A stretch of 21,416 nt of DNA from a virus. Under the pieces are notes generated by a model. The model did not search any database, was not told the DNA's origin, and was given only the letters and a program-made list of their open reading frames with translations. The stretch spans positions 1 to 21,416 of the IMG/VR virus record IMGVR_UViG_3300020034_000073. One strand, 5' to 3'. Both the position numbers and the translations under genes were made by a program. Positions 5,668 through 18,479 of the stretch are shown piece by piece (the first letter of the stretch is position 1; the number at the start of each line of letters is the position of its first letter).

Positions 5668-5736
5668 TCGGGCGTAGTTTAAGTAAAACGCAGGGTCGCT
5701 CCCTGAGACCTAGGTTAAATTCCTAGCGCCTGACCA
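5668..5736 (+). tRNA. tRNA-like element with reduced D-arm, possibly degenerate, encoded CCA
   Basis: An acceptor stem TCGGGCG (5668-5674) pairs with CGCCTGA (5727-5733), with one G-U pair, and is followed by CCA (5734-5736). A T-arm, CTAGG/CCTAG with 7-base loop TTAAATT, lies directly before the acceptor strand. TAGTTTAAGTAAAAC (5675-5689) matches the usual TAGTTTAATGGTAAAAC D-arm with two bases missing. The anticodon arm is either CAGGG/CCCTG with a 5-base loop TCGCT, or CAGG/CCTG with loop GTCGCTC, which would put U at position 33 and anticodon CGC (Ala). The D-loop lacks the GG and the T-loop lacks C56, so the normal D-loop/T-loop contact is lost. Total length is 69 with CCA, against about 76. 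It may be a worn phage tRNA or a tRNA mimic; charging is doubtful. Confidence 0.5.
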
Positions 5737-5791
5737 ATTATCAATTTTGTAGTAATTAGTAATTCATTAGTACTTCTCAAGGATGAGAAAT

Positions 5792-8020
5792 ATGGAGCGA
5801 GACCCTAATGATGTTAATCAGGATTTTGATCCTGAGAAACTGAATGAGATGGAAGAAAGACGTATCAATCGTCTAAACGAAGCAGGAATTGACGAGAGCC
5901 AAGTTCTTGTTCAAGCTGGCAAGCATCTCAATATTTGGCAATCCTACTTCGGCGAAAACATTACACGCGGCAAAGATGATATGAATTTCGTCTTGCGTGA
6001 TCAATGGACTGCGATTGAGAGAAGCGAATTTACTCGCCTCTTTAAACCTGCCATGACGTTTAATAAATTGTACGATACTGTAAAAAAAGTAGCAGGTGAG
6101 CAACGTAAGAACAAACCAGATTTAATAGTCCGATCATTGACAGGTAAAGCATCTCAAGAACAGATAAATCTTCGAGCTGATCTAGTACGTACGATAAGCT
6201 ATCAATCTCAAAATGATCTTGTTTATCAAACAGCATTTAAATCAGCCCTTATGATGGGTTATGGCGCATTTCAAATTGTGCTAGATTATGAGTCACCAAA
6301 ATCATTCAATCAAGTTATTCGCTATGAGCTCATTTCTGATCCTACTCGAACGGCATTTGATCCGACCGCCCTTAAGCCTCATAAGGGTGATGGCAATTAT
6401 TGCGCTCGTTATTACGTATTTACTAGAGATGAGTTTTTCGCTACTTATCCATATGTTACAAATCCTGTTAGTTATGTTGATCCGTATATGCTCTTGGACT
6501 TCCAATGGCAAACGCGAGACACCATAACAGTATGTGATTATTTCGTTAAAGAATGGTTTCCGATAACCATTTATAAATTAGCTCCCACGCCTGAATTTCC
6601 ACGTGGCCAAGTGGTCAATGAAGTAGAACTTGAGAAATTGCGTAAAGATTGGAAAGTTCAATTAACGATTACGGAAGAAACACAAGAAATTAAGAAGATG
6701 GTCAAGGCAATGGAACCTCAGATCGTCAATGAACGTCAGACGCAAGATTATCGCATCATGCACTATCGGATGATTCGCGATCAAATCATTGAATTCTCTG
6801 AATGGCCAAGTAAACAATTACCGATTATATTTGTCGATGGCGATAGTTATTTTATCGAAGGCAGACAGTATACAAGGTCATTTATCCATGAAGCTCGTGA
6901 TGCTCAAAAATGCGTTAATTATTTCGGAAGCGAGATCGCTGCGGAAGTCAAAAATAGACGCCGTGAGCAGTGGCTGGGGACTCCAGACAACATATCCGGT
7001 TATGAACAGGATTGGCGCAACCCTGAGTTACAGATGGGCATTTTACGTGCGAAACCCGATCCGAAGACAGGACTCATGCCCGTTAAGCAGCCACCGTGGG
7101 ATCTCTCCCCGGCTATTATGCAAAACTTTCAACGAGCTACCCAAGATATTCGTGAGATTCTTGGCTTCAGTGAAACGGAAGCGTTACAGGGGCGGGATAT
7201 CTCTGGCAAAGCAAGACGTGAACGTAAACTTGAAGGATCAATGAGTGCCTATGTATTCCAAGACAATATGAACCAAGCGGTTGAACAAGGTGGACGCGTC
7301 GTAAATGATCTATTGCCTTATATCATTGGTGATGATGAACGCACAATGGTATTAAGCAAGAAAGATGGTAAGACTGATTCAGTTACCATGAATGAACAAG
7401 ATCGTGAAGGTAATATTAAAAATGATCTTGGTGATGGCGATTTTGATGTTGAAATTAATGCAGGCCCATCATTCGCAGTTCAGAAATCTGAAGCATTGGA
7501 ATTCTTCCAAGAAACCATGGCAAATAATCCGCAAGTGTTCCCATTGATTGCTGATTTATGGGCATCGAATCTTGATATTGAACAAATGCCAACGGTGAAA
7601 GATAGATTGAAGACATTAGTTCCGCCTGAAATATTAGCGAAAGAAGAAGGTCGACCACCTCCACCACCTAAACCAAATCCACAGGCCATGATGATGGAAG
7701 CTGAGATGAAGTTTAAGCAAGAAGAGATTAAAAATAAACAGGCTGAAGTTCAAGTGAAGATGCAGAAATTGCAACTTGAACAAGAAGAAATTGAACTTAA
7801 AAAGGCCGAGATGTTTTTAAAGGCGCAACAAGTTCAAGATAAATCGACTGCTGAAGTTTATAGTCATCAATTGGATCTTGAGAAAGCTAGAGCCGTTCAT
7901 GGTCATGATAAACATAAATCAGAAATAGACTTTGCGCATAAGGTTTCATCAGTATTAGCTGATCTTTATAAGCATGATACAAAGTTAGAACATGAGAAGA
8001 AAAATAAAGCCAAGGAATAA
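5792..8020 (+). CDS. Portal protein, P22 gp1-like
   Basis: The 742-residue product forms the dodecameric ring at one vertex through which DNA enters and leaves. Length is close to P22 gp1 (725). The first ~560 residues show the family's wing and stem sequence (WTAIERSEFTRLFKPAMTFN, then ISYQSQNDLVYQTAFKSALM, and later SDPTRTAFDPTA). After a proline run near residue 619 the last ~120 residues are a continuous charged helix (QEEIKNKQAEVQVKMQKLQL...), matching the C-terminal barrel of P22-type portals. ATG 5792 is chosen since AAGGA (5779-5783) lies eight bases before it; the in-frame ATG at 5783 overlaps the ribosome site. The stop codon is inside the loop of a strong terminator hairpin. It lies downstream of terL across the small-gene run and tRNA-like element, and upstream of the scaffold gene. 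Confidence 0.93.
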   Translation: MERDPNDVNQDFDPEKLNEMEERRINRLNEAGIDESQVLVQAGKHLNIWQSYFGENITRGKDDMNFVLRDQWTAIERSEFTRLFKPAMTFNKLYDTVKKVAGEQRKNKPDLIVRSLTGKASQEQINLRADLVRTISYQSQNDLVYQTAFKSALMMGYGAFQIVLDYESPKSFNQVIRYELISDPTRTAFDPTALKPHKGDGNYCARYYVFTRDEFFATYPYVTNPVSYVDPYMLLDFQWQTRDTITVCDYFVKEWFPITIYKLAPTPEFPRGQVVNEVELEKLRKDWKVQLTITEETQEIKKMVKAMEPQIVNERQTQDYRIMHYRMIRDQIIEFSEWPSKQLPIIFVDGDSYFIEGRQYTRSFIHEARDAQKCVNYFGSEIAAEVKNRRREQWLGTPDNISGYEQDWRNPELQMGILRAKPDPKTGLMPVKQPPWDLSPAIMQNFQRATQDIREILGFSETEALQGRDISGKARRERKLEGSMSAYVFQDNMNQAVEQGGRVVNDLLPYIIGDDERTMVLSKKDGKTDSVTMNEQDREGNIKNDLGDGDFDVEINAGPSFAVQKSEALEFFQETMANNPQVFPLIADLWASNLDIEQMPTVKDRLKTLVPPEILAKEEGRPPPPPKPNPQAMMMEAEMKFKQEEIKNKQAEVQVKMQKLQLEQEEIELKKAEMFLKAQQVQDKSTAEVYSHQLDLEKARAVHGHDKHKSEIDFAHKVSSVLADLYKHDTKLEHEKKNKAKE

Positions 8021-8033
8021 TCTTGGCTTTATT
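8003..8033. terminator. Bidirectional terminator between portal and the antisense cassette
   Basis: A perfect 12-bp stem AATAAAGCCAAG/CTTGGCTTTATT with a 7-base loop contains the portal stop codon (8018-8020) and lies two bases from the stop of the convergent minus-strand gene. Read on the minus strand it is followed by a T-rich tail (ATTTTTCTTCT), stronger than the plus-strand tail (AATTATTTT). It would end the minus-strand cassette efficiently and the portal transcript at least partly. Confidence 0.85.
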
Positions 8034-8035
8034 AA

Positions 8036-8515
8036 TTATTTTATAATTTGATTGGTATCAATTATTAATTCGTAATTTTGACTTAGATCAAATTTAACGG
8101 GAAGACTTTGTGATGCAGGAAAATTTAATTTTTGTTTCAGTAGAAAACTAAAATGGCAATTATCTGATTTTGAAGTAGTTGAAACAGCATAGGATGAAAT
8201 GGCTTCAGGGTTTTTTATAATCAAGAAAAGATGAGGTGAAGATAATGTTGTTAATACACCTACTCTACTGCCTTTTTTATAATCTAATAAGTCAGCTATC
8301 TCTTTTCCAACATAAACGGTCACAAGATTTTTATTAAGCTTATTAATATATCTTATATAAATATGCGATTTACTTAGTTTTCTCATGCTTTTATTTCCAA
8401 CGGCTAGCCATTCTTCTTCGCTTATTTTTTTAATTAAACTGAAACTATCCTCTTTCTTCTGATTATTTAATTTAACTACTTCTAATGCTCTTTTTAGATC
8501 ATTTATATCTTGCAT
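8036..8515 (-). CDS. Unrecognised protein of an antisense two-gene cassette, 159 aa
   Basis: This gene is read against all the morphogenesis genes. The N-terminal ~50 residues are a charged helix (MQDINDLKRALEVVKLNNQK...). From about residue 50 the protein is beta-rich: HIYIRYINKLNKNLVTVYVG, then EIADLLDYKKGSRVGVL, then LFLIIKNPEA, and finally LNFPASQSLPVKFDLSQNYE. The segment V-V---K-IADLL-YKKG-RV-VL followed by LI-KNP resembles the swapped-hairpin AbrB-like layout of some small phage proteins, a loose similarity only. The ATG at 8515 overlaps the stop of the HTH gene by one base and has AGGA nine bases upstream, so the two are translated together. The composition is visibly more AT-rich than portal or coat, as expected of an acquired gene. 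Function unknown. Confidence 0.8.
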   Translation of the reverse strand: MQDINDLKRALEVVKLNNQKKEDSFSLIKKISEEEWLAVGNKSMRKLSKSHIYIRYINKLNKNLVTVYVGKEIADLLDYKKGSRVGVLTTLSSPHLFLIIKNPEAISSYAVSTTSKSDNCHFSFLLKQKLNFPASQSLPVKFDLSQNYELIIDTNQIIK

Positions 8516-8724
8516 TATTTTACATCCTTATAAGCAAAAATATTATTAGCGAACCATTTATTTAGTTCGTCGACGGAATAATAAACTTTTCCTTTATCTT
8601 GAATTTTTATAAAGGGAGGAGGTTGTTTTTTGTGACGCTGTTTTTGAAACCAAGAAACTGAATAGCCATAAATATGGCTAGCCTCTTTATCAGAGATATA
8701 TTTGACACCGAAAATTTCAATCAT
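8515..8724 (-). CDS. Small helix-turn-helix DNA-binding protein (AlpA/excisionase-like)
   Basis: The 69-residue protein has the winged-helix layout of the HTH_17/AlpA/excisionase group: YISDKEASHIYGYSVSWFQK (residues 9-28) is the helix-turn-helix, PPPFIKI is the strand turn, and KVYYSVDELNKWFANN is the wing strand and last helix. Proteins of this type act as small transcription factors or recombination directionality factors. No integrase lies in the window, so control of its own cassette is the more economical role. The upstream palindrome and direct repeats (8727-8820) are candidate binding sites. AGGA lies eight bases before the ATG, inside the palindrome. It leads the minus-strand cassette lodged between portal and scaffold. 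Confidence 0.85.
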   Translation of the reverse strand: MIEIFGVKYISDKEASHIYGYSVSWFQKQRHKKQPPPFIKIQDKGKVYYSVDELNKWFANNIFAYKDVK

Positions 8725-8726
8725 GT

Positions 8727-8741
8727 ATCACATCCTGTGAT
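8727..8741 (-). promoter_or_regulatory. Palindrome over the ribosome-binding site of the HTH gene
   Basis: ATCACA-TCC-TGTGAT is a perfect 6-bp inverted repeat ending two bases before the HTH start codon. On the minus strand its centre supplies the AGGA ribosome site. It could be a dimer operator for the HTH protein or an RNA hairpin that hides the ribosome site; the 3-base loop makes a DNA operator at least as likely. Both readings predict feedback control of the cassette. Confidence 0.55.
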
Positions 8742-8765
8742 TAGGTTTCATTTAAATTATTCCTC

Positions 8766-8820
8766 TTCAAATCATTTCAAATCCTAGCAGTAATAAATTG
8801 TTAATTCTAGAAATATCTAG
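8766..8820. promoter_or_regulatory. Control region with paired 10-bp-phased direct repeats
   Basis: TTCAAATC occurs at 8766-8773 and again at 8776-8783, exactly ten bases apart. TCTAG occurs at 8806-8810 and 8816-8820, also ten bases apart, and another CTAG is at 8784-8787. Repeats one helical turn apart are typical of sites for small HTH or wing-helix proteins. No convincing -35/-10 pair is visible on either strand; TAAAAT at 8830-8835 is the best -10-like hexamer on the plus strand. The region separates the divergent HTH and scaffold genes. Confidence 0.4.
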
Positions 8821-8844
8821 CGGTAAGAGTAAAATTTAATCATC

Positions 8845-8888
8845 ACGGAAATGGATTCCGTTGGGCTTCCGAACAGCCTTACAGTTCG
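8845..8888 (+). promoter_or_regulatory. Hairpin-rich leader upstream of the scaffold gene
   Basis: Two hairpins stand in tandem: ACGGAA/TTCCGT (8845-8850 with 8856-8861, 5-base loop) and CGAAC/GTTCG (8870-8874 with 8884-8888, 9-base loop). Neither has a T-run, so they are not terminators. They end about 20 bases before the scaffold ribosome site (GGAG, 8910-8913). P22 scaffold synthesis is known to be autoregulated after transcription; a similar role for this leader is inference. Confidence 0.35.
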
Positions 8889-8918
8889 CGGGCACAAGAA
8901 TTGCCGAGTGGAGTCAGT

Positions 8919-9707
8919 ATGGATAGCGATCAGGATATGTCGGGTAACGACACGGAAAGTTTGACTGGTGATGTATTAGATGGTTTGGGTGTGCCCAAGG
9001 ATGCGATGAATGACGAAGGTCAGGAGTCGGGGGGCAATGAGAACACGGGTGAAACGCTTGCTGTTCAGAAACGTATTAAACAGTTAAAGCGTGCTCACGA
9101 GCGGGAAATGCGTGAGATGCAATCCAGGATGGATGAAATGCAATCACAATCTCAACCGAACCAAATGAATAACCAGCAAATGAATCCAGATGAAGCCGGT
9201 GACGGTGGAATCAATGATGCGATTCACAAGGCAGTTAGCTTCGCTCTCCAACATCGGGATATGGAGGAGAAAAAAGCTAAAGATCATGAGTCAAAGCAGC
9301 ATATTGCTAAGCAATATCAAGAGTTGAATAAACATCTTGATCAGACCTCAGATAAATATGATGACTTTGATGATGTTGTACGTGGAGAAGCCCCGTTCAC
9401 GGCACACATGCGAGACGCAGCATTAATGTTACCCAAAAAAGGCCCAGGAAGTGCAGGCGAAGTCCTGTATCGACTAGGCAAAGATCCTGAATCACTCGCC
9501 CGTATTGCAAAACTCCACCCCGTAGATCAAGCGTCAGAATTAGTGGCTTTAAGTCATGCCTTGATTAGTGGTGGTGAGCAGAAAGGCTCGCCCAATCGTC
9601 CTCTTGGACAAATCAAGTCAAACCCAGTCGTTAATTCTGTCGGTGTAAATGAAAAAACGCCGGTATCTGATATCAGATCACGGATGAAGGCCGGAAAGTT
9701 TAAATAA
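8919..9707 (+). CDS. Capsid scaffolding protein (putative, P22 gp8 position)
   Basis: The 262-residue product is highly polar. It has an acidic N-terminus (MDSDQDMSGNDTESLTGDVL), a basic helix near residues 50-75 (KRIKQLKRAHEREMREMQSR), a Q/N/M-rich linker, a helical middle, and a basic end (DIRSRMKAGKFK). Scaffold proteins guide coat assembly and leave the shell before packaging; P22 gp8 is 303 residues and also ends in a basic helix that binds coat. Position immediately before the coat gene is the main evidence. ATG 8919 has GGAG at 8910-8913 five bases upstream; the in-frame TTG at 8901 has no ribosome site. The hairpin-rich leader lies just upstream. Confidence 0.8.
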   Translation: MDSDQDMSGNDTESLTGDVLDGLGVPKDAMNDEGQESGGNENTGETLAVQKRIKQLKRAHEREMREMQSRMDEMQSQSQPNQMNNQQMNPDEAGDGGINDAIHKAVSFALQHRDMEEKKAKDHESKQHIAKQYQELNKHLDQTSDKYDDFDDVVRGEAPFTAHMRDAALMLPKKGPGSAGEVLYRLGKDPESLARIAKLHPVDQASELVALSHALISGGEQKGSPNRPLGQIKSNPVVNSVGVNEKTPVSDIRSRMKAGKFK

Positions 9708-11338: not shown

Positions 11339-12376
11339 ATGTCCCAACAGGTCAAGACAACAAATGATGTCATTGTTAATGCGCTGTATTTGATCGGCGA
11401 ATTAGGCGTTGGTGAAACGCCAGATGGTTTCATGTTGTCTACAGGTTTAGAACTTATTAATGAGTTACTTGATAAGTTTGCAGCGGACAGTATTTATATT
11501 CCTTATCTCACGACATTGGATTTTAATTTAGTCGTTGGAAAAGATACTTATTCTGTTTCTGATATGGTTCCATCCGATATTCGTGCAGATCGTATTGTTG
11601 ATTTATCATTTGCAAATTATTTTGTACCTGCGAATGGAAATCCTGCGGGCGCATTACCCATTTCGACTCCTTTTACCGCGGATAGTACCACATCGTTGCT
11701 GACCCTTGCATCGACTGTTTCTTATCCGACGAATACGCCCGTAACGATTTCGACAACTGGTATTGTACCATCTCCCTTCGTTGCGACCACTACCTATTAC
11801 ACAATTCAAGTGAGTCCAACAACTTTATATTTGGCCAGCACATCGGCTAATGCTTTATTGGGTATATTTATTCCGATTTTGAATAATGGATCAGGACAAA
11901 ATATATTGACCGCCTATAACTTTCCGACGCAGCCCGTAAATGCGTCGTTAGTATATCCAATGCGGATAATCAATAAAGCAACTTATTGGAATGTCGTGCG
12001 TCAAACAAATTTATTAGCACGACCTGGTTTTATATTCTTAGATAAGCAAGCGCAAGAATCATTCCTAACGGTATATCCAGTTCCTGATCAACCTTATGCG
12101 TGTAAAGTTCAGGTGAAATCAATGCTGAATTTTCTAAGCAACCAACAGTCGATTGGTGAATTGCCTCCGAATTATTATGGTTTCTTGAAATATGCGCTGG
12201 GTCGAAAATTCCTTGCTTATTATCCATCAGGTAATTGGCCTAAACAAAATGAAGATGAGTATGATGATTATTATCAAACCTTCAAAAATTGCAATGAGAC
12301 AGATTTAACAATTCGTCCATCTGTCACCATGACTGCACCTGAGCCGTTCTATTGGCCAAACATATTGAGTTATTAA
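11339..12376 (+). CDS. Tail accessory factor, P22 gp4-like, with inserted module
   Basis: In P22, gp4 (166 residues) binds the portal after packaging and starts tail assembly. The first ~100 residues here (TNDVIVNALYLIGELGVGET, then ELINELLDKFAADSIYIPYL) and the last ~140 (the conserved end PPNYYGFLKYALGRKFLAYY, then DEYDDYYQTFKNC) match that head-completion family. The protein is twice the usual length, 345 residues, largely because residues about 111-192 form an inserted beta-type module (FTADSTTSLLTL...STTG...YY-IQVS...ILNNGSG), also present in the next gene. GGGAG at 11326-11330 gives a good ribosome site. The gene lies between coat and gp10-like genes, exactly as in P22. The core assignment is firm; the role of the insert is unknown. 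Confidence 0.88.
   Translation: MSQQVKTTNDVIVNALYLIGELGVGETPDGFMLSTGLELINELLDKFAADSIYIPYLTTLDFNLVVGKDTYSVSDMVPSDIRADRIVDLSFANYFVPANGNPAGALPISTPFTADSTTSLLTLASTVSYPTNTPVTISTTGIVPSPFVATTTYYTIQVSPTTLYLASTSANALLGIFIPILNNGSGQNILTAYNFPTQPVNASLVYPMRIINKATYWNVVRQTNLLARPGFIFLDKQAQESFLTVYPVPDQPYACKVQVKSMLNFLSNQQSIGELPPNYYGFLKYALGRKFLAYYPSGNWPKQNEDEYDDYYQTFKNCNETDLTIRPSVTMTAPEPFYWPNILSY
11669..11914 (+). repeat. Shared protein module, copy 1 (inside the gp4-like gene)
   Basis: Encodes about 82 residues starting FTADSTTSLLTLAS and ending NNGSGQNIL. Copy 2 at 12939-13190 in the neighbouring gene shares FTADSTT-LLT, STTG--P-P-VA-T-YY-I-VS and I-NNGS in the same order. The DNA has diverged, so this is an old duplication or two separate acquisitions of one domain type. 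Domains of this kind (GTPV-VSTTG-LP-GL--GT-YYV) recur in phage virion proteins. Confidence 0.75.
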
Positions 12377-16690: not shown

Positions 16691-18479
16691 ATTCGATACG
16701 AGTGATTTTGAACCTACTAATAGTGGGAATAATTCATTTAATCCTCATGATTTTGAGCCAACATCAAAAAATGAAGGTACAAAACCAATTCATATATTTT
16801 CAGGAAAAATGAATGAAAACGAGGAAAATAAATTTAAAAATGAATCTAGGAAAACATTGATAGATGCTTCTTTGGGTGGGGTTCAAGGCATTGCAAATAT
16901 TCCTAGTGGAACGGCTGAATTATTGAATCCAACTTCCCATAAAATTCCGAGATTTGATTTTGCCCCCAAAACTGGCGCCTCACAAGCTGGACAAATCGCG
17001 GCACCATTTCTAGGCCCTCAAGGTGTAGAAATGGGCGCATTAAAAGCCCTTCAATATACTCCAAAGGCATTAAATTATCTTACAAAATTATCGAATGCTG
17101 CTAAAGCGAAACCTGTTACTAATGCATTATTGAAAGGTGGTAAAACAGCAGCAGAAGTTGGCTATATTAATGCGTTAGAAAATCCCGATAATGCTAAACA
17201 TGAATTTATGAAAGGCGCAGCATTTGGCGCCCCATTTGGTGCATTAAGTTCTGTAGCCGCACAAGGCGCTAAATATGCCACGCCCATTGCAAAGGCTGCA
17301 ATGGGCGCCTTAATTGGTAATCAGTTTGGTCATCCGTATTTAGGCGCTGTAACAGGATTAGGCTTCCCAATTAGAGGGGCTTTAGGAATGGAGCCAGCTA
17401 ATAAAATATCTGAGGATATGTTATCTGGTTTGAATGAAAAAGATGTGATGAAAACTGTCAATGCAAATAAACGTCTTAGAACTAATATAACGCCTGGTGA
17501 AGCAAGCGGCAATTATGTAAGAGGCGCTCAAGAAGGCGCGTTGAAACGTACGGCTGGTGGTGGACAATTAGGTTATAGATTAGAAGAAGGCGAAAAATAT
17601 AAGCAAAATAATGCTATAAATCGCATGCTTGATAAAATTTATAAGCCGACTAAAGAAAATGAAAACAAAATAAATACTTTATATGAAAAGGCATATAAAC
17701 AAGATGTTGATCCAGCTATCGTTGAAAATATGATGAAAAACCCCACAATGCGCAAGGCAATTGAAAATGTTCAATTAAACCCAGCCTTTGAAGGAGTTGC
17801 TCCAAATAATTATAAATTCCTTGCTCAAGTAAATAGAGAATTGAGAAATGATATAAATTCATTATCTAATTCGGCCATGGGTTCAGAAAGAATAACTGCG
17901 CATCATCTTGAACAGAATAGAAAACCATTTGATAAATTCTTAAAAGAAAATAATCCTGATTATAAAGCGGCAACTGAAGTTGCACATGGGAAATTAACGC
18001 GAGAAGAAATAGAAAGAAAAGGTAATAAAGATTTAGAAGACTTAACGGCCAAAACTTTTTATTCTAAGTTTCTAACCAATAGAAAACCTTATAAAGAGTT
18101 ATTGCAACAAACTTCTAAATTTCCAGAAGCTCAAAGTATGATTAAGGATATGAGGACTGGATGGAAAAATTTGTCTAATATGAAAACAGTTGGGCAAAGT
18201 GAAGCGCAAGCAAAATCAAATATTGATAACCTAAGAAATATGGGGAGCTATATCATTAATATGGTTAAAAATATGGCTGGCGCTAAAGGAGATATTGCGA
18301 GGCTTAAATTTATTTATAGTCCTGACTGGCAAAAAGGATTTCAGCAAAGAGCTTTAATTCAAGACAGAAATAAAAGAATAAATGAAATATCGCATTATAT
18401 TGTAAATACCGGATTAAAAGCTGGTATCGCCAAGAATAAAATTGATAATCTTATTGGCGCATTAAATGAAAAAGACTGA
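16677..18479 (+). CDS. Putative DNA-ejection protein (P22 gp16 position)
   Basis: At 600 residues it is the size of P22 gp16 (609) and sits in the same place. The N-terminus carries two short repeats, DTSDFEPT and NPHDFEPT, in a disordered charged leader. Residues about 60-240 alternate helices with glycine- and alanine-rich stretches (EFMKGAAFGAPFGALSSVAA, AKAAMGALIGNQFGHPYLGA) suited to crossing a membrane after ejection. The rest is charged helical sequence. P22 gp16 is needed for DNA transfer across the inner membrane; this role is assigned by position and style. ATGs at 16671 and 16677 are both possible; AGG at 16665-16667 fits 16677 better. It overlaps the upstream gene by 14 bases. Confidence 0.75.
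   Translation: MKKFKFDTSDFEPTNSGNNSFNPHDFEPTSKNEGTKPIHIFSGKMNENEENKFKNESRKTLIDASLGGVQGIANIPSGTAELLNPTSHKIPRFDFAPKTGASQAGQIAAPFLGPQGVEMGALKALQYTPKALNYLTKLSNAAKAKPVTNALLKGGKTAAEVGYINALENPDNAKHEFMKGAAFGAPFGALSSVAAQGAKYATPIAKAAMGALIGNQFGHPYLGAVTGLGFPIRGALGMEPANKISEDMLSGLNEKDVMKTVNANKRLRTNITPGEASGNYVRGAQEGALKRTAGGGQLGYRLEEGEKYKQNNAINRMLDKIYKPTKENENKINTLYEKAYKQDVDPAIVENMMKNPTMRKAIENVQLNPAFEGVAPNNYKFLAQVNRELRNDINSLSNSAMGSERITAHHLEQNRKPFDKFLKENNPDYKAATEVAHGKLTREEIERKGNKDLEDLTAKTFYSKFLTNRKPYKELLQQTSKFPEAQSMIKDMRTGWKNLSNMKTVGQSEAQAKSNIDNLRNMGSYIINMVKNMAGAKGDIARLKFIYSPDWQKGFQQRALIQDRNKRINEISHYIVNTGLKAGIAKNKIDNLIGALNEKD

What the first reader, a model, noticed from the sequence alone, without database searches (positions are those of the whole stretch)
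8036..8724. Antisense HTH plus unknown-protein cassette lodged between portal and scaffold
These are the only minus-strand genes in 21 kb of co-oriented morphogenesis genes. They are coupled (TAATG), have their own control region, end at a strong hairpin, and are more AT-rich than their neighbours. This is the signature of a moron: a unit expressed separately from late genes, often from a prophage, giving exclusion, defence or host change. The 159-residue partner has no family I can name firmly, so this could be an undescribed two-gene system.
Basis: partly seen in the sequence, partly recalled or inferred. Interest (0 to 1): 0.65.

Follow-up and report, generated by a model that had tools for sequence, protein, structure and literature searches.

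The report
Mobile antisense phage cassette beside scaffold
A small backwards-facing pair of genes sits in a spot between two head-building genes where related viruses of bacteria carry either nothing or a changing assortment of extras; the regulator half moves between distantly related phages and swaps partners, and the partner is an undescribed protein probably aimed at the host cell.

Summary
The two antisense ORFs are real, conserved genes. The window is a fragment of an uncultured P22-like podovirus. In 26 loci (window included) the portal-scaffold gap is a cargo slot: 12 have it empty (35-137 bp), one holds only a tRNA, and 13 carry 443-2326 bp of varied, mostly antisense cargo. The HTH gene with its upstream region is the constant part (5 of 26). 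Its partners differ: p159-type proteins, an endonuclease VII-type HNH, a 73-aa ORF, or none. It is 77% identical in a P22-like lineage whose portal and coat are only 24-25% identical, so it moves horizontally to the same position. The 159-aa protein evolves fast, matches no named family, and has a relative without the HTH elsewhere. So 'moron' is supported; 'two-gene system' and 'prophage' are not: partners swap, and no integrase or resolvase was found in 11 relatives. The hairpin also exists in an empty relative. Best model: an HTH-led, self-regulated accessory cassette with an exchangeable host-directed effector; regulation and function are inferred. Side finding: the slot's right border is a strongly covarying pseudoknotted leader RNA before the scaffold gene, absent from Rfam.

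The parts
8515..8724 (-). 69-aa HTH_17 / excisionase-like DNA-binding protein, first gene of the cassette and its constant part
   Evidence: Pfam HTH_17 E 6e-5 (below the curated cut-off); PHROG excisionase/regulator E 4e-4; 64-80% identical in 5 other loci
8036..8515 (-). 159-aa protein of a fast-evolving family; variable N-terminal region and a confident beta-rich domain at about residues 50-159
   Evidence: No Pfam/PHROG/NCBIfam/PADLOC family; relatives in L003, L005, L011, L037; AF2 model pLDDT about 83-90 from residue 50
8725..8800 (-). Upstream control region of the HTH gene, conserved only with the HTH (motif GAATAATTTAATTGAAAC)
   Evidence: no sigma-70 promoter above chance
8727..8741 (-). 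Palindrome ATCACAGGATGTGAT holding the HTH Shine-Dalgarno sequence; outer pair changes from A-T to T-A among relatives; candidate RNA hairpin or operator
8003..8033 (.). Bidirectional terminator-like hairpin that contains the portal stop codon; shared, not part of the cassette
   Evidence: same hairpin in empty relative L009
8830..8835 (+). TAAAAT, -10-like element of the conserved AGAGTAAAATTTAATCAT block before the scaffold leader (right border of the slot)
   Evidence: Seen in occupied and empty relatives
8841..8922 (+). Structured leader RNA of the scaffold gene: hairpin P1 (8846-8850/8856-8860), H-type pseudoknot (8864-8867/8875-8878 with 8870-8874/8884-8888), hairpin P3 (8891-8894/8902-8905), then GGAGT and ATG 8919
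   Evidence: 24-sequence covariation; covariance model hit E 3e-28 (the window is in the training set)
5783..8020 (+). Portal protein gene, left neighbour of the slot
   Evidence: P22_portal E 1e-103
8919..9707 (+). Scaffolding protein gene, right neighbour of the slot
   Evidence: PHROG head scaffolding protein E 2.5e-13; start inferred from the alignment of leaders

Best explanation
This is a moron: a mobile accessory cassette lodged antisense in a variable slot between portal and scaffold of an uncultured, probably virulent P22-like podovirus. Shown: the slot is empty or differently filled in relatives; the HTH gene with its upstream region is the portable constant part; the second gene is exchangeable; p159 diverges much faster than its neighbours. 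Inferred: the HTH protein binds its own upstream region and limits transcription of the cassette so that it does not run against the late genes, while p159 is an effector that acts on a host process (most likely counter-defence or takeover). Transcription from the cassette would end at the portal hairpin; its upstream region is separate from the conserved promoter-like element and leader of the scaffold gene.
For: Slot sizes are bimodal in 26 loci: 12 with 35-137 bp, one of 155 bp with only a tRNA-Thr, 13 with 443-2326 bp. HTH loci: window and L003 (p159 type), L011 and L005 (more distant p159 relatives; L005 also has a 193-aa ORF and an endonuclease VII-type HNH), L004 (HNH), and in other P22-like lineages L040/L043 (73 aa) and L046 (alone). 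HTH is 77% identical to L043 while portal is 25% and coat 24%, with upstream sequence conserved too. Against L003: p159 50%, HTH 80%, portal 85%, coat 95% identical; dN/dS about 0.43 for p159 and 0.14 for HTH. A p159 relative lies without HTH on the plus strand in L037. No integrase or resolvase in 11 relatives.
Against: No expression data. No promoter above chance by consensus scan. Autoregulation rests on a conserved upstream region and a 15-nt palindrome only. p159 has no named family or solved fold, so an effector role rests on its rapid divergence and position. The HTH loci in other lineages are few, and all relatives are metagenomic contigs, which can be misassembled.
Confidence: 0.6

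Rival explanations
1. The slot is in origin a homing-endonuclease slot. A free-standing HNH gene (endonuclease VII type) with an HTH leader spread itself into the portal-scaffold gap; the window carries a derivative that lost the nuclease and kept HTH plus a hitch-hiker.
For: Endonuclease VII-type HNH genes lie antisense at the portal end of the slot in L004, L005 and L014; the record of L004 has three more antisense HNH_3 genes. T4 segD is a known antisense free-standing endonuclease between capsid genes (PMC2988022).
Against: No nuclease domain in the window cassette. The slot also holds tRNAs, a cytosine methylase and other ORFs. HTH occurs with p159-type genes and no nuclease in three loci and alone in L046.
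Confidence: 0.25
2. An anti-CRISPR-type operon: the HTH is an Aca-like autorepressor and p159 an anti-CRISPR or other anti-defence protein (a narrower form of the best explanation).
For: A conserved small HTH with changing small partners is the pattern by which aca-associated genes were recognised (PMC6538845); Aca proteins repress their operon from inverted repeats in the promoter (PMC9410906); a palindrome sits before the HTH.
Against: aca genes typically follow acr genes, here the HTH comes first. The HTH profile matches no solved Aca protein. PADLOC finds nothing (it lists defence rather than anti-defence proteins). The palindrome overlaps the Shine-Dalgarno sequence, not a recognised promoter.
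Confidence: 0.2
3. A lysogeny or immunity control pair like P22 immI (repressor plus antirepressor), or a Cox/Xis-type switch.
For: HTH_17 is common in excisionases; P22 relatives carry repressor genes in their ant moron (PMC2629481).
Against: No integrase or resolvase in 11 relatives of 22-39 kb; pattern scans of the bacterial and archaeal genome collection found no relative of portal or HTH; the cassette is absent from most relatives.
Confidence: 0.05
4. A toxin-antitoxin pair (HTH antitoxin, p159 toxin) used for maintenance or exclusion.
For: Two small overlapping genes, HTH first; half of p159 weakly resembles AbrB/MazE-type domains.
Against: The pair is not stable: HTH with other partners or alone, p159 relative without HTH. 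No TA family hit.
Confidence: 0.1

Closest known systems
Ant moron of P22-like phages (between genes 16 and 9; PMC2629481)
   Same: Variable, non-morphogenetic gene set with DNA-binding regulators inserted in the late gene cluster of P22-like phages; absent in some relatives
   Different: Different site (portal-scaffold), HTH_17 rather than Mnt/Arc-type repressor, no antirepressor, no sign of lysogeny. That paper states that no morons are found at other places in the morphogenetic clusters of the phages compared
Free-standing homing endonucleases of phages (e.g. T4 segD antisense between genes 23 and 24; PMC2988022)
   Same: Antisense mobile gene in an intergenic space among head genes; HNH genes occupy the same slot in L004, L005, L014
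   Different: The window cassette has no nuclease domain; it carries an HTH and a beta-rich protein
acr-aca operons (PMC6538845, PMC9410906)
   Same: Conserved small HTH regulator with exchangeable small partners on mobile phage DNA
   Different: Gene order reversed; no sequence match of the HTH to solved Aca proteins; anti-CRISPR activity untested
Uncharacterised phage proteins A0A6J5SFY0, A0A6J5RP58, A0A6J5L3G4, G8DH80 (BFVD)
   Same: Predicted fold similar to p159 (Foldseek E 4e-5 to 1e-3, TM up to 0.70)
   Different: 9-15% identity, no known function

Membership tests
Moron | Inserted between genes that are adjacent in relatives | tested here: met
   12 of 26 loci have 35-137 bp there; adjacent in BA3, P26218 and Vibrio phage 1.211
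Moron | Horizontal acquisition / different base composition | tested here: met
   HTH 77% vs portal 25% identity to L043; GC 0.28 vs about 0.39-0.49
Moron | Own promoter and terminator, expressed apart from the late operon | tested here: inconclusive
   Terminator-like hairpin present but shared with portal; upstream region conserved but no promoter above chance; no expression data
P22 ant moron | Located between homologues of genes 16 and 9, with Mnt/Arc/Ant genes | tested here: not met
   Located between portal and scaffold; HTH_17, not ribbon-helix-helix
Free-standing homing endonuclease | HNH, GIY-YIG or LAGLIDADG nuclease domain | tested here: not met
   No such hit in either window protein; met in relatives' slots L004, L005, L014
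acr-aca operon | HTH related to a known Aca family | tested here: not met
   Only Aca proteins with solved structures could be compared; no match
acr-aca operon | Partner inhibits a CRISPR-Cas system | not testable with these tools
   Needs an experiment
acr-aca operon | Inverted repeat in the core promoter bound by the HTH | tested here: inconclusive
   15-nt palindrome over the Shine-Dalgarno sequence, conserved in 5 of 6 aligned loci
Toxin-antitoxin system | Obligate, co-inherited pair | tested here: not met
   Partners exchange; HTH alone in L046; p159 relative alone in L037
Excisionase (Xis/Cox) of a temperate phage | Integrase in the same genome | tested here: not met
   PF00589 and PF00239 absent from 11 relatives; the window's own record is only a 21-kb fragment
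AbrB/MazE-like (swapped-hairpin) domain for p159 | Profile or fold match | tested here: inconclusive
   Beta-beta-alpha-beta-beta order in two models; residues 50-104 vs AbrB/SpoVT/MazE hhalign score 20.7 vs at most 11.1 in 30 column shuffles, but no Pfam hit and no PDB fold hit
Known Rfam RNA family for the scaffold leader | Match to any of 4227 models | tested here: not met
   No match at the leader in the window (E up to 1) or in L009 and L024 (E up to 10)

The most novel reading that the evidence does not exclude
The HTH gene with its upstream region is a portable, self-limiting expression platform that phages use to load exchangeable anti-host effectors into one tolerated spot of the late region, and p159 founds a new family of phage counter-defence proteins.
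Probability: 0.2. Interest if true: 0.7.

Novelty: new variant of a known kind. Interest (0 to 1): 0.5.

Why it matters
A published comparison of P22-like phages found morons at only one place in the morphogenetic cluster (PMC2629481). Here a second place, next to the scaffold gene, is a busy cargo slot in an uncultured P22-like group, and one small regulator marks it across distant lineages. That regulator can serve as a handle for finding new host-directed phage proteins by association. The slot's right border, a pseudoknotted scaffold leader, gives a concrete RNA candidate for how scaffold synthesis is controlled; P22 scaffolding protein is known to limit its own synthesis after transcription (from my own knowledge, not retrieved here).

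Tried and rejected
p159 against Pfam, PHROGs, NCBIfam, PADLOC, PDB sequences and cultured phages: nothing. Fold search against PDB with two models: nothing below E 0.001. Genome scans with a portal and an HTH alignment: no relatives; the p159 alignment A2 had too little conservation to scan genomes. HTH in cultured phages, and the L004 HTH in plasmids: nothing. Internal duplication of the p159 domain (two AbrB-like halves): not supported (score 9.5). L027 p101 as a p159 relative: weak only (E 4e-4 pairwise, E 0.15). Prophage origin and stable two-gene system: rejected, see above. MFE folding of the leader alone is not exceptional (z -0.27); the case rests on covariation including the pseudoknot.

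Full report
Setting. The window is a 21,416-base virus record with no larger genome behind it. Gene content and order are P22-like: terminase, P22-type portal (E 1e-103), scaffold, P22-type coat (E 4e-25). The nearest relatives are uncultured contigs (portal up to 85-90% identical); cultured phages reach about 25% portal identity.

Observation. The region is AT-rich. The hairpin at 8003-8033 is real and terminator-like on both strands, but it contains the portal stop codon and is present in L009, whose slot is empty.

The slot. With the portal stop and the conserved scaffold leader as borders, 26 loci (window included) fall into two groups: 12 with 35-137 bp, L023 with 155 bp and a single antisense tRNA-Thr, and 13 with 443-2326 bp. 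The fillings differ: HTH plus p159-type gene (window, L003, L011), HTH plus p159-type gene plus 193-aa ORF plus endonuclease VII-type HNH (L005), HTH plus endonuclease VII-type HNH (L004), tRNA-Thr pairs with small ORFs (L007, L015), small ORFs (L013, L019, L022), a sense ORF (L021), a cytosine methylase plus antisense ORFs (L027), and one stretch without a clear gene (L029). Most are antisense. In three cultured P22-like phages the two genes are adjacent (BA3, P26218, Vibrio phage 1.211).

The HTH. It is an HTH_17/excisionase-like protein. It keeps 64-80% identity across six loci together with about 75 bp upstream, which include the motif GAATAATTTAATTGAAAC and, in five of six, a palindrome around the Shine-Dalgarno sequence. 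Horizontal movement is shown by L043: the HTH is 77% identical there while portal is 25% and coat 24% identical, and it lies again antisense just upstream of the scaffold gene. More distant HTH relatives in L046 and L047 lie at the same place.

The 159-residue protein. No named family. AlphaFold2 gives a confident beta-rich domain from about residue 50, reproduced with the L037 relative as query. No solved structure matches; uncharacterised phage proteins do. Against L003 it is 50% identical, against 85% for the portal and 95% for the coat, and a relative occurs without HTH on the plus strand between terminase and portal in L037. So it is an independent, fast-changing cargo gene.

Mechanism. 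Shown: an exchangeable cassette in a variable slot. Inferred: the HTH regulates its own unit, and p159 acts on the host. Not supported: prophage life style and an obligate pair.

Side finding at the right border. All 24 aligned loci keep an 80-nt leader between a TAAAAT-like element and the scaffold ATG. The structure I propose (hairpin, H-type pseudoknot, hairpin) is formed in 92.8% of cells, with 88 double changes against 24.5 +/- 4.6 in shuffles, while sliding the partners by 1-3 columns leaves 31-40% paired. RNAalifold found the three nested helices by itself. A covariance model finds it just before the scaffold gene in 26 loci, including L027 and L032 outside the training set, with no strong second copy; it is absent from five cultured or named relatives and from Rfam at this place. 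Its role is unknown; an autoregulatory site for the scaffolding protein is my suggestion.

Limits. All comparisons rest on metagenomic contigs; the host is unknown; no expression or binding data exist.

Noticed in passing
window 8841-8922 (+) and the same place in 25 relatives (e.g. L009:8241-8321, L032:8313-8394): Strongly covarying pseudoknotted leader RNA directly before the scaffold gene, absent from Rfam; candidate new cis-regulatory RNA family, possibly the site of scaffold autoregulation. The P1 loop often reads ANGGA, like CsrA-binding hairpins (own knowledge).
   Followed up: yes
L049:8455-8943, 11346-11825, 17813-18337 (-): Three more antisense HNH_3 genes in the record of L004; free-standing HNH genes recur in this phage group.
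   Followed up: partly
L007:4313-4460, L015:8941-9090, L023:2266-2338 (-): Antisense tRNA-Thr genes as slot cargo, in two loci as a CGT/TGT anticodon pair.
   Followed up: partly
window 5668-5735 (+): tRNA-Ala with anticodon CGC just before the portal gene.
   Followed up: no
L043, L046, L047 upstream of scaffold: Distant P22-like lineages have a different, repeat-like leader before the scaffold gene, perhaps another structured RNA.
   Followed up: no
window 8901 vs 8919: The scaffold ORF as listed starts at TTG 8901 inside hairpin P3; the conserved start is ATG 8919.
   Followed up: yes
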